This document shows positions 21,851-28,811 of a stretch of DNA of 64,000 nucleotides, one piece after another. The position numbers were made by a program, and so were the translations under genes. The stretch comes from an uncultured Nitrosomonas sp. (GTDB lineage: Bacteria; Pseudomonadota; Gammaproteobacteria; Burkholderiales; Nitrosomonadaceae), in assembly GCA_949281375.1 (NCBI GenBank), contig CASDLT010000010.1, positions 1 to 64,000 on the forward strand, given 5' to 3'. How positions within the stretch are numbered: position 1 is the first letter of the stretch; each line of letters begins with the position of its first letter. The notes under the pieces were generated by a model, which ran no database searches, had not been told where the DNA came from, and saw only the letters and a program-made list of their open reading frames with translations.

Positions 21851-22201
21851 CTATGATTTCGTTTTATTATTTTTTCCCATATCCTCTAATACCTCATCCA
21901 TTGATACATCTTCAATACTGAGTAGCTCTCCATTTTCATCAACCGTTATCCAGATCTTTTTCCGATCTAATTTTAGAACCTTAGCTAAATATATGTCTCT
22001 CACCTTTTCCCCTTTTTCTAATAAAACTATTTGCTCTTTCTTTAGTTTTTTAATCGATCCACCTTGAGCATGTTCATTGATTTTTCTTTCAATAATCGAT
22101 GGTATCGGCAACGATAAAACTTTCTCTTCTTGAGAATCAGCGTAACTTACATTTGAAAATGCCAGTGTTATACCAAGTAGCAAAAGAAACTTAATGTTCA
22201 T
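21851..22201 (-). CDS. Secreted small protein, PepSY-like character
   Basis: Signal peptide MNIKFLLLLGITLAFSNVSYA; IYLAKVLKLDRKKIWITVDENGELLSIED resembles PepSY; downstream of the galactose-oxidase-like gene. Confidence 0.6.
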   Translation of the reverse strand: MNIKFLLLLGITLAFSNVSYADSQEEKVLSLPIPSIIERKINEHAQGGSIKKLKKEQIVLLEKGEKVRDIYLAKVLKLDRKKIWITVDENGELLSIEDVSMDEVLEDMGKNNKTKS

Positions 22202-22264: not shown

Positions 22265-23842
22265 TCAAGTATTTTCGCCAATTTGTATAATCTTTGCCTC
22301 TGATGGAAATCCCCAGGGATTCCAGGCAAATAGCATATAAAAACCAGGCGGAATTATTGAAGCTGATGCCGGAGATTTCACGGTCACAATCCTGCCTGCC
22401 TGGGAAACTGGCAGATCAAGAAAACGTGATTCGTTGTCAAAGCTGTGAGTGACTGTGCCCAAGCGGGTAAGCGTGATTCGTGCAATGGTATGAGTCGCTT
22501 CTACTGAAAAGCTCTGATTCCAGCCGATCATATGGGAAGGCGCATCAGTGATTTTCGGCCTAGCTGCAAACTGCCCACTTCCATCTTTTTTAAATAAATA
22601 CGGTGGAAAGTAAACTTCGCCATTAAGTTGGTTCACGGGGCCTGGCGCACCACCTCCGGCAGTAATTACGGTACCATCCGGAAGTAACATAGAAGCAGAG
22701 TGATATAAGCGCGATCTTGTCGCACTTGCAGCCGCTGACCAGGTACCCGTAGTAGGATTCCACAGCTCGGAATCGAGCGCTACCCCTGTGAGAGTATTTC
22801 CCGTAGAGGAACCTCCATTCATCCAGACATGACCATTAGCAAGCACCGTCGCATTACCATATTGCCGGTCTCTTATTGGTTGTCCAACTGGAGTGATAAC
22901 AGGCGCCCGGGCGTCATTGATATCGACCACAACAGCAACGCGATCTTTTCTGATCGAAAGAATGCGTCCTGGAGCAAACATAATGCTGGGCAAGCTTGGG
23001 CTGCTAGCTGCAGTTCTTTCTTTATATTTAGTAAGCGAACCGCTGCCATACTGATTAAGGTTGTACATGGCACCTGCATGGTTAATTATGAATATATTAC
23101 CCTGAGGATTTAACCAAGCCCGAGGATAATTCCACGACCCGCCTCCCAATTCACCATAAGCTTCCTCACTGGAGGCTGAGTATAAAGTACGCCAACTACC
23201 ATTTAAGGCACGAATTTCGGGGGTAGGAGAATAAGTCGCTTCTGTGCTTGGTTTAGTCGAAGTTCCTGCGAATGGTTTATTATTTCGACCTCCTAAAACA
23301 ATATGATTGCCGTTGGATAACGTAACTGCCGTTGCATACCAACGCTTATAAGTCATATTTTTGGTTTGCCGGATCAATGAATCCGTTGCAAAATCAAAAA
23401 TATTAACGTTGTTATTGGCATAATTTCTAATACCGTTCACTAGTGAATCACCTCCAAGGACCAGCGCATGACCCGTGGTTGGTATTATCGCTTGTGCGGC
23501 ACAGAAAATATCCGTTTCAGTGCTATTGCTTAAAACCTGAAAGGCTGCGGCACTTGTTCCTTTGGAAGGATCCCATATCACATAATTCAAATTAGCACTT
23601 TGTTTGCCATCGGTAGTTGTACCATACGCAAAAACTCGTCCATCAGGCATCAACATCATTGCCAGAGGTATGATGGGCCAGTTATGAACAGAGCCAAATC
23701 TGCCTTTTATATGTGCTTGTGATCCGGCTGCTGAAACCTCAGCACTAATCCCAATCGAGCAAAGGACTAAACAAGAAGATGATAGAAAAAAAGCGACATT
23801 CCGAATGTTATTAAAAATTAAGTAAAATATACTTAAAGTCAT
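22265..23842 (-). CDS. Galactose-oxidase-like copper radical oxidase (kelch + DUF1929)
   Basis: Kelch repeats; ETDIFCAAQAI (Cys), YKRWYATAV (Tyr), SRLYHSASMLLPDG (Tyr-His), TVTHSFDNESRFLDL (His) match the galactose oxidase active-site blocks. Confidence 0.85.
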   Translation of the reverse strand: MTLSIFYLIFNNIRNVAFFLSSSCLVLCSIGISAEVSAAGSQAHIKGRFGSVHNWPIIPLAMMLMPDGRVFAYGTTTDGKQSANLNYVIWDPSKGTSAAAFQVLSNSTETDIFCAAQAIIPTTGHALVLGGDSLVNGIRNYANNNVNIFDFATDSLIRQTKNMTYKRWYATAVTLSNGNHIVLGGRNNKPFAGTSTKPSTEATYSPTPEIRALNGSWRTLYSASSEEAYGELGGGSWNYPRAWLNPQGNIFIINHAGAMYNLNQYGSGSLTKYKERTAASSPSLPSIMFAPGRILSIRKDRVAVVVDINDARAPVITPVGQPIRDRQYGNATVLANGHVWMNGGSSTGNTLTGVALDSELWNPTTGTWSAAASATRSRLYHSASMLLPDGTVITAGGGAPGPVNQLNGEVYFPPYLFKKDGSGQFAARPKITDAPSHMIGWNQSFSVEATHTIARITLTRLGTVTHSFDNESRFLDLPVSQAGRIVTVKSPASASIIPPGFYMLFAWNPWGFPSEAKIIQIGENT

Positions 23843-24376
23843 AAATTACCTCGTATTAATTAACTCTAACCTAGAGTCCAGATCCTTTAAGTTATTTTTT
23901 ACAGCTTAAATCTTCAGAAATGACTGATCCATTCAGACGGATCTTGGATTATTCAAGCTTTTATTAAGAAACTGGCACTCTGATGCACAGGAGAGTTGAG
24001 AAAGAAAAAGCGATAGAAATAACTGCCATATCTAAACTGAACTAAAATCGGCCATTTAGGATATATTCCTCCATAATTATTTTTCTGTGCGGTTACGCAC
24101 ATTACAACAGGGTATATAGGCAAATCTTCCTAGATGACGAAGATGAATCTTGGGTATAAAGACACTGGGATTTACGGAACGCAAGATCATGCAGATATTG
24201 GAGCAAGCTGGGAGGAGCGTTTGTAGTTGACTTTTGATGAAAGCATGGAATGGGTGATCGACTTTGTGCTTGGTGTTTCATCCTAATGTTTCGCTTGATT
24301 TCCAGGTTCCAGTGAATACTCATCCTAATCTTGCTGCCACCAATGTAGCAGTGAAATCCAATCTGGCGTATTTAAC

Positions 24377-24523
24377 TTAGGGAAGCGCTGATTAACTCAA
24401 CGTACGTGATGAAGGGCGAGGCGCACCGAAGGCAACAACCGAGACATGTCAATCTGATAGGCGAAGAAATAAGTGCCGCGCAACGAAGCAATTCGCTCGC
24501 GCAGTCAACTCAGCGCTTCTTTT
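24377..24523 (+). repeat. Dispersed ~150-bp TIR element, copy 2
   Basis: TTAGGGAAGCGCTGATTAACTCAACG...CTGATAGGCGAAGAAATAAGTGCCGCGCAACGAAGCAATTCGCTCGCGCAG...CAGCGCTTC. Confidence 0.8.
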
Positions 24524-24693
24524 GGAAAACACTGATCAGTTCACTCCGCAGCAGGGACTCAACGAGCGGATTGGAGAGGGTTAAGGTGATTTACCATTCT
24601 GGCTTGAAGTGCGCTGTTTTTTTGCATTATCTTTTTTGTTTACTGAGTTTGTCTTTAAGGCGCAATCTACCTGTCAGAAGTTACATAATTTAT

Positions 24694-26968: not shown

Positions 26969-28558
26969 TCAGCTCACGAAGAAATTACGCATCATTCCCA
27001 TATCCTCGTGTTCCAGGTTATGGCAATGGTAGAGAAACAAACCTGTGTATTCATTGAAAGGTTTAATGATCTCGACCTCCTCTCCAGGCATCACTAGAAC
27101 GGTATCCTTCCAGCCGCTAGTGATGAAGCCCTCTTTAACGCTGTCGTACCCGTCGTCACGATTGGGTTGCCGGCGCGACAGGATTTGAAACTGCTGGCCA
27201 TGCAGATGAATCGGATGCGGCTGTGACATCATCATGCCCATGCCCCCCATTCCACCACCCATTCCTCGACCCATGCCCCGATTCTCATGGAAAATCCTGA
27301 TCCGTTGAATCGTGTTGACCGGAATCTTTTCAGCTGCCTGGTAATTCAGCATATCGAATGTTCTGCCATTCAATTGAAATCCCATATGACGCATGCCGAT
27401 CGCTATGGGAACGACTTTGTCGGAATCGGTGCAATCTTTGAGCGTCAATCGACGCATAGCAACCAGTTCAGCGGGTAGTTTCGGCGACTCTCCGACGTGT
27501 TCGGCAATATGAAAGCGTGCAATAGAAAGCGTTTCATTCTGACCTACTCCAGCCATCATGCCCATTCTGCCCATACCGCCGCCCATGCCTCTGTGCGCAG
27601 ACCCTTGATAAGGCAGACTCTGCAAAATCAGCTCTGAACCAACCTCACGACCACTGAAATCAACCCATAGCTCAACCCGCTCAGCCGGCGCGAGCATGAT
27701 GTATGGAAATGTCTCAGGTCTTTGCAATAATCCGCCATCGGTGGCAATCGCGGTCATCGGCGTACCATCATTCCAGCCCAGCTTATAGATTCTCGCATTG
27801 GAACCATTCAGAACACGAATTCTGTAAGCTCTTGTTTTTACTGGAATAATACCGTTTTCCTGACCATTTATCAAGAGCGTATCGCCCATGAATCCCGTCA
27901 TGCGCTGATGCATGCCCAGCATATAACGGAACTGGTTGCTACTGGTGAAGCTACGATCCTGAATGATCAGTGGAATATCATATTCCCCGCTCGGCAAATC
28001 CAGTTTCTGCTCGTGCTCATCGGAAATGGTAATGAGGCCGGCCAAACCCTGATACACCTGCGTCGCCGTCAATTCGTGCGTATGTGAATGGTACCAGTTG
28101 GTTCCAGCCGGGTTTTTTACCTCGAATTCATAGATATACTGTTCACCCTTCAAGATTGCATACATCGGATGTCCATCCATGATTTGCGGAACGTGCATGC
28201 CGTGCCAGTGCGTTACACAAGGTTCTGGCAGTTCGTTATAGAAGAATATCCGCACTTTCTGTCCATGCTGAAAATTCAGAATGGGTCCCAAATAACCCGG
28301 CAACACCTTAACCGTTTCGGGCGGTCCCTTCAGCAGTTTACCCTGGTATTTGAATACATGGGTTTGCGGCCCAGGCCGTATCGACACATCAGCGGCCTGA
28401 GCAGTCAACGCAATTTCAACATCTGCATTGAACGCCGGGTTGGGAGTCTGCCGCATCTCCCGGTCTTCCGCCCAGCTAAAACCAGGCAATGAGGCAGCGA
28501 GGGCGCTAGCCGCTGCGTAGTGTAAAAATTGCCGCCTTGAATTATCGATGTGAGTCAT
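26969..28558 (-). CDS. Tat-exported multicopper oxidase with Met/Gly-rich loops
   Basis: SRRQFLHYAAASALAASLPGFSWA Tat-like signal; HWHGMHV, NWYHSHTHE, HPIHLHGQQF, LYHCHNLEHEDMGMM copper motifs. Confidence 0.93.
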   Translation of the reverse strand: MTHIDNSRRQFLHYAAASALAASLPGFSWAEDREMRQTPNPAFNADVEIALTAQAADVSIRPGPQTHVFKYQGKLLKGPPETVKVLPGYLGPILNFQHGQKVRIFFYNELPEPCVTHWHGMHVPQIMDGHPMYAILKGEQYIYEFEVKNPAGTNWYHSHTHELTATQVYQGLAGLITISDEHEQKLDLPSGEYDIPLIIQDRSFTSSNQFRYMLGMHQRMTGFMGDTLLINGQENGIIPVKTRAYRIRVLNGSNARIYKLGWNDGTPMTAIATDGGLLQRPETFPYIMLAPAERVELWVDFSGREVGSELILQSLPYQGSAHRGMGGGMGRMGMMAGVGQNETLSIARFHIAEHVGESPKLPAELVAMRRLTLKDCTDSDKVVPIAIGMRHMGFQLNGRTFDMLNYQAAEKIPVNTIQRIRIFHENRGMGRGMGGGMGGMGMMMSQPHPIHLHGQQFQILSRRQPNRDDGYDSVKEGFITSGWKDTVLVMPGEEVEIIKPFNEYTGLFLYHCHNLEHEDMGMMRNFFVS

Positions 28559-28811
28559 GATGGCCTCTGAGCTATAACAAATTTTTTGAAAAACCGAGAT
28601 GAAAGGGTCACTAACATTGTTACTGCGCCGGAGCATGCAGCCGACAGTGTAATCACTTATGATTTAGTGTATCAGTTCAAACTGAATAAGCAATGGGAGG
28701 AGGATGATCGACTTCAAAATTCTGCGCAGGCTTGCGCACATCAAAACCTACAGGCATATATTCGACCGTCGGTGATCCTGAGGAAATCGCAAGGAGGTTT
28801 TCAGAGTGTCC

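What the first reader, a model, noticed from the sequence alone, without database searches (positions are those of the whole stretch)
22265..23842. Bacterial copper radical oxidase with the complete galactose oxidase active site
By motif alignment, Cys114 (ETDIFCAAQ), Tyr169 (KRWYATA), Tyr380-His381 (SRLYHSASMLLPDG) and His466 (VTHSFDNESRFLDL) correspond to the Cys-Tyr cofactor and copper ligands of galactose oxidase (C228, Y272, Y495, H496, H581). This implies an active secreted Tyr-Cys radical enzyme; the family is mostly known from fungi and from actinobacterial GlxA. The N-terminus suggests export. Substrate and physiological role in this presumed chemolithotroph are unknown.
Basis: partly seen in the sequence, partly recalled or inferred. 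Interest (0 to 1): 0.6.

Follow-up and report, generated by a model that had tools for sequence, protein, structure and literature searches.

The report
Nitrosomonas secreted copper radical oxidase
An ammonia-oxidizing bacterium of the genus Nitrosomonas carries genes for a secreted copper-radical enzyme of the galactose/glyoxal oxidase type, and one detail of its active site suggests that it oxidizes small aldehydes, making hydrogen peroxide, rather than galactose; no paper found here describes such enzymes in these bacteria.

Summary
The ORF is real: 22265-23842 on the minus strand, 525 aa. They are invariant in 46 of 46 stand-alone Nitrosomonas homologues. An AlphaFold model (pLDDT 86, pTM 0.85) has its 27 best PDB matches among galactose, alcohol and glyoxal oxidases. 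Atomic geometry of the site could not be measured.

One correction: the galactose oxidase site is not complete in the second shell. The stacking-Trp position (W290) is N187, and no Arg aligns with R330. Instead W168 directly precedes the cross-link Tyr, as in Streptomyces GlxA (W288) and fungal FgrAldOx (W509). An H2O2-forming aldehyde oxidase is therefore the better prediction.

The stand-alone clade was found only in Nitrosomonas (28 of 125 family genomes, mostly 2-4 copies). No gene neighbour is shared with the window copy; the genome lacks cellulose synthase and DyP peroxidase, so the GlxA model does not transfer. The same genome also encodes a CRO fused to a multicopper oxidase, 2 kb from a tyrosinase gene. 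This is a new subfamily of a known enzyme kind; substrate and role remain open.

The parts
22265..23842 (-). Stand-alone copper radical oxidase gene, 525 aa
   Evidence: ORF, Pfam, PDB sequence matches, AlphaFold model plus Foldseek, tree
23729..23842 (-). N-terminal export signal, about residues 1-38, with candidate AxA cleavage near EVSA-AG
   Evidence: Hydrophobic 15-mer then AxA; low-confidence helix in model; no SignalP run
23501..23503 (-). Cys114 codon, cross-link Cys (GalOx C228)
23336..23338 (-). Tyr169 codon, cross-link Tyr (GalOx Y272)
23339..23341 (-). Trp168 codon, second-shell Trp in the GlxA W288 / FgrAldOx W509 position
   Evidence: Invariant in the clade; GlxA wild type RWY versus W288A mutant RAY; PMC13094651
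23282..23284 (-). Asn187 codon at the GalOx W290 stacking position (no Trp here)
   Evidence: Alignment to 9g8h and 6ryv/6ryw/6ryx (Y334 position); N/D/S/R across the clade
23114..23137 (-). Clade-specific motif S-W237-x-Y-P-R241-x-W243 in the region aligned with GalOx R330
   Evidence: W237, Y239, P240, R241 and W243 invariant in the stand-alone clade; W237 and W243 not found in the more distant relatives
22700..22705 (-). Tyr380-His381 codons, axial Tyr and Cu ligand (GalOx Y495-H496)
22445..22447 (-). His466 codon, Cu ligand (GalOx H581)
21851..22201 (-). Downstream 116-aa secreted protein gene (PepSY-like by eye), 63 bp from the CRO stop; probably incidental
   Evidence: No Pfam match; relatives in 45 of 125 family genomes, none seen next to a CRO elsewhere

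Best explanation
The gene encodes an exported mononuclear copper radical oxidase (AA5-like; seven-bladed kelch propeller plus E-set domain). Copper is bound by Y169, Y380, H381 and H466; Y169 is cross-linked to C114 and stores a radical under W168. By the ping-pong mechanism of this family, a small aldehyde or its hydrate (glyoxal, methylglyoxal or glycolaldehyde type) is oxidized to the acid, and O2 reoxidizes the site to give H2O2. Shown here: fold, residue equivalence, invariance, purifying selection in relatives, and absence of the galactose-oxidase markers. Inferred: cross-link, activity, aldehyde preference, location (periplasm or outside), and the physiological role, for which removal of reactive carbonyls and/or supply of H2O2 is the working proposal.
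For: Five ligands invariant in 46/46. Profile-PDB matches along the whole catalytic unit. AlphaFold pLDDT 86.1, with the top 27 PDB hits all galactose, alcohol or glyoxal oxidases. R167-W168-Y169 invariant; GlxA has the same RWY, and its W288A mutant chains read RAY; in FgrAldOx W509 precedes the cross-link Tyr510, and both enzymes prefer aldehydes (PMC13094651, PMC4736821). [quoted passage not shown] dN/dS 0.06-0.21 in close pairs. Export signals in 43/45. The genome has SCO1/SenC-type copper chaperones.
Against: By overall profile score and tree the protein lies nearer to galactose oxidases (E 4e-98) than to GlxA (5e-57) or fungal AA5_1 (1e-35), so W-Y may be an ancestral bacterial trait rather than a marker of specificity: it is present in nearly all bacterial homologues sampled. 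No operon partner supports any substrate. Copper geometry was not measured.
Confidence: 0.6

Rival explanations
1. An alcohol or galactoside oxidase of the AA5_2 type that makes aldehydes from primary alcohols of sugars or extracellular glycans.
For: Best sequence and fold matches are AA5_2-type enzymes; the tree places the clade on the side that holds GalOx and CgrAAO, though with open forks.
Against: W290 and R330 equivalents are absent, and RWY replaces the RGY of 9g8h and CgrAAO.
Confidence: 0.2
2. A GlxA/FbfB-like enzyme that modifies a cell-surface glycan during aggregation or biofilm formation.
For: The characterised bacterial relatives GlxA and FbfB act in morphogenesis (PMC3543389, PMC4736821); the protein carries an export signal.
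Against: The window genome has no CelA/BcsA match, and full-length CelA was found in none of the stand-alone-CRO genomes (one partial match in G066). No DyP peroxidase in the window genome. No glycan gene next to the window copy, and no Pfam-scanned or recurrent neighbour of a stand-alone copy that was inspected looked like a partner.
Confidence: 0.15
3. A kelch-propeller protein that keeps the ligands but is not a catalyst, for example a copper-binding or copper-sequestering protein.
For: Nitrosomonadales have unusually many copper proteins (PMC6769254); a CueO-like multicopper oxidase lies 3 kb away.
Against: Besides the copper ligands, C114 (cross-link) and W168 (radical shielding) are invariant, which copper binding alone would not require.
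Confidence: 0.05

Closest known systems
Galactose oxidase (Fusarium 1gof; bacterial Pseudoarthrobacter siccitolerans 9g43/9g8h), AA5_2
   Same: Fold, C/Y/Y-H/H ligand set, E-set domain; best sequence and fold score
   Different: No N-terminal carbohydrate-binding domain; N187 at the W290 position, no R330 equivalent, RWY instead of RGY
GlxA of Streptomyces (4unm), bacterial glycolaldehyde-oxidizing CRO
   Same: Ligand set, W directly before the cross-link Tyr, exported bacterial enzyme
   Different: About 16% identity; not in an operon with a cellulose synthase; NCBIfam GlxA equivalog 124 bits against a cut-off of 800
Fungal AA5_1 glyoxal/aldehyde oxidases (FgrAldOx 9n3u)
   Same: W-Y second-shell arrangement, partial Glyoxal_oxid_N match above cut-off
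   Different: Only 20% identity, weaker profile score (E 1e-35); no WSC domain

Membership tests
Copper radical oxidases (AA5-like) | Kelch propeller followed by galactose-oxidase E-set domain | tested here: met
Copper radical oxidases (AA5-like) | First-shell Cys, Tyr, Tyr-His, His | tested here: met
   Alignment and invariance; three-dimensional distances not measured
Copper radical oxidases (AA5-like) | Tyr-Cys thioether cross-link, radical, H2O2-forming turnover | not testable with these tools
   Needs protein
Galactose 6-oxidase (AA5_2) | W290/R330 pair | tested here: not met
   N187 and no aligned Arg; criterion from PMC11267884
GlxA equivalog (NCBIfam NF052501) | Score at or above 800 bits | tested here: not met
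   124 bits, residues 304-521 only
GlxA / AA5_1 aldehyde-oxidase type site | Trp immediately before the cross-link Tyr | tested here: met
   W168-Y169 invariant; GlxA RWY; FgrAldOx from PMC13094651
Fungal AA5_1 | Full-length Glyoxal_oxid_N similarity and clade membership | tested here: inconclusive

The most novel reading that the evidence does not exclude
Nitrosomonas and related ammonia oxidizers run a multi-copper-enzyme oxidation system: secreted stand-alone aldehyde-type CROs plus a fused multicopper-oxidase/CRO protein linked to tyrosinase, coupling O2, H2O2 and phenol/quinone chemistry in an autotroph.
Probability: 0.15. Interest if true: 0.65.

Novelty: new variant of a known kind. Interest (0 to 1): 0.42.

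Why it matters
A well-resolved, genus-restricted CRO clade in ammonia oxidizers appears undescribed: in a β-proteobacterial copper-proteome survey the words galactose and glyoxal do not occur (PMC6769254), and full-text searches found no paper linking such an enzyme to Nitrosomonas. It would add a copper- and O2-consuming, H2O2-producing reaction to organisms whose copper budget matters for nitrification, and it offers compact bacterial CROs without extra domains and with a new pocket motif.

Tried and rejected
Operon logic: no conserved neighbour shared with the window copy. The downstream 116-aa gene has relatives across the family but none seen beside a CRO. GlxA-CslA-DtpA model: no CelA in the window genome, no DyP. 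Decay of the window copy: only 3 otherwise clade-invariant positions are changed, within the range of the others (0-5). Recent import: GC3 is low (0.365 against 0.50-0.57 in the neighbours checked), but no close donor was found, so this stays unresolved. Promoter and terminator scans were no better than shuffles. amoA was not found in the draft window genome, but it was also missing in about half of the genus drafts sampled, so this was not used. A structure job for the MCO-CRO fusion was not run because its locus came from a tool whose sequences the predictor does not accept.

Full report
1. The gene. ORF 22265-23842 (-) encodes 525 aa, starts with ATG preceded by GAGG, and has no internal stop. 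Pfam finds Glyoxal_oxid_N (107-198), Kelch_6 and GO-like_E_set (428-521). NCBIfam's GlxA model matches residues 304-521 at 124 bits, far below its 800-bit cut-off. The best PDB matches are bacterial galactose oxidase 9g8h/9g43, Colletotrichum CRO variants and Fusarium galactose oxidase.

2. Residues. A profile of 26 relatives aligns over the full catalytic unit with 9g8h (E 3e-125) and 1gof (4e-98), and more weakly and partially with GlxA 4unm (5e-57) and FgrAldOx 9n3u (1e-35). C114, Y169, Y380-H381 and H466 fall on the GalOx ligands C228, Y272, Y495-H496 and H581. In an alignment of 46 stand-alone and 19 more distant Nitrosomonadaceae sequences, all five are invariant, except that one distant row does not align over the first two. 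Chance is not a reasonable explanation.

3. Fold. AlphaFold2 gives mean pLDDT 86.1 and pTM 0.85. Foldseek against the PDB ranks 27 copper radical oxidase chains first (E 1e-36 to 1e-26), then unrelated kelch propellers at 1e-11.

4. The second shell differs from galactose oxidase. The W290 position (Y334 in CgrAAO, varied in 6ryv/6ryw/6ryx) aligns with N187; across the clade it is N, D, S or R. No Arg aligns with R330. [quoted passage not shown] Instead W168 precedes the cross-link Tyr. GlxA has RWY at this place while its W288A mutant chains read RAY, so GlxA W288 is the same position; in FgrAldOx W509 precedes Tyr510, and that paper notes the flipped Trp shared by these aldehyde-oxidizing enzymes (PMC13094651). 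The Nitrosomonas clade also has its own invariant W237-x-Y-P-R-x-W243 motif. The aldehyde prediction therefore rests on a structural analogy, weakened because RWY occurs in most bacterial homologues sampled (34 of 39 rows outside the clade have W).

5. Distribution and descent. A scan of 84,980 genomes gave 31 loci; the 24 at 54% identity or more are all Nitrosomonas. The next relative is a Rubrivivax MAG (41-44%). In 125 family genomes the stand-alone type occurs in 28 (27 clear, one as fragments), all in one genus; about two thirds of these carry two to four copies. None of 369 class genomes has it beyond the window's own. The clade has 100% SH-aLRT support, and the window copy sits on its own branch near the base without a close orthologue. 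Close pairs show dN/dS 0.06-0.21. Genomic sites differ between copies; some are conserved between species, none matches the window's.

6. Role. Nothing in the neighbourhood names a substrate. GlxA of Streptomyces works with a cellulose synthase and needs Sco and the DyP peroxidase DtpA (PMC4736821). The window genome has SCO1/SenC proteins but no DyP and no CelA. Reactive-carbonyl removal or H2O2 supply is the working proposal, marked as inference; the former has been reported for a fungal glyoxal oxidase (title and abstract of PMC11315307).

7. A related find in the same genome. Contig C40 encodes a 1023-aa protein with an N-terminal multicopper oxidase (His motifs HSLHVHG, HDH, HNFHLH, HCHVEMHMMEG) and a C-terminal CRO with all five ligands. 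A tyrosinase gene lies about 2 kb away on the same strand. Comparing, a CRO-family match (in two cases only a short remnant) lies within 5 kb of a tyrosinase in 12 genomes of two genera. No export signal was evident in the fusions. This was not pursued further.

8. Verdict. It is a new subfamily of a known kind, with moderate interest.

Noticed in passing
G000 contig C40:156027-159098 (L090:6028-9099, minus strand): 1023-aa fusion of a multicopper oxidase (N-terminal) and a copper radical oxidase (C-terminal) with apparently intact copper motifs in both halves; similar fusions in at least 11 other Nitrosomonadaceae genomes of two genera.
   Followed up: partly
G000 contig C40:153364-153939 (inside L090): Tyrosinase gene about 2 kb from the MCO-CRO fusion on the same strand; CRO-family matches lie within 5 kb of a tyrosinase in 12 genomes.
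   Followed up: partly
G000 contig C24:64402-65874 (L091:5916-7475): Second stand-alone CRO copy in the same genome, 61% identical to the window copy and syntenic with Nitrosomonas sp. JL21.
   Followed up: yes
window 24376-24528: Interspersed repeat of about 130-150 bp with roughly 30 copies in the genome, in the gene-poor 1.7 kb upstream of the CRO.
   Followed up: no
window 26969-28636 (-): CueO-like multicopper oxidase with a weak Tat-signal match and Met/Gly-rich stretches, 3 kb from the CRO.
   Followed up: no
L094:3556-7464, L095:5850-9746, L096:4199-7456: About 1,100-1,300-aa CROs followed by Ig-like (Big_7) and CARDB repeats, next to a secreted PEP-CTERM-like protein gene.
   Followed up: no
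L109:6043-9414: CRO-like protein preceded and interrupted by near-identical FG-GAP-like repeats (PGWFGAENQGAGIALADISGNGRPDLI), an unusual insertion within the propeller.
   Followed up: no
L111:9619-10080, L122:8622-9080 and others: His-rich secreted protein of about 153 aa (8 loci) and a membrane protein (5 loci) upstream of the CRO in a subset of genomes; possible copper handling, no Pfam match.
   Followed up: partly
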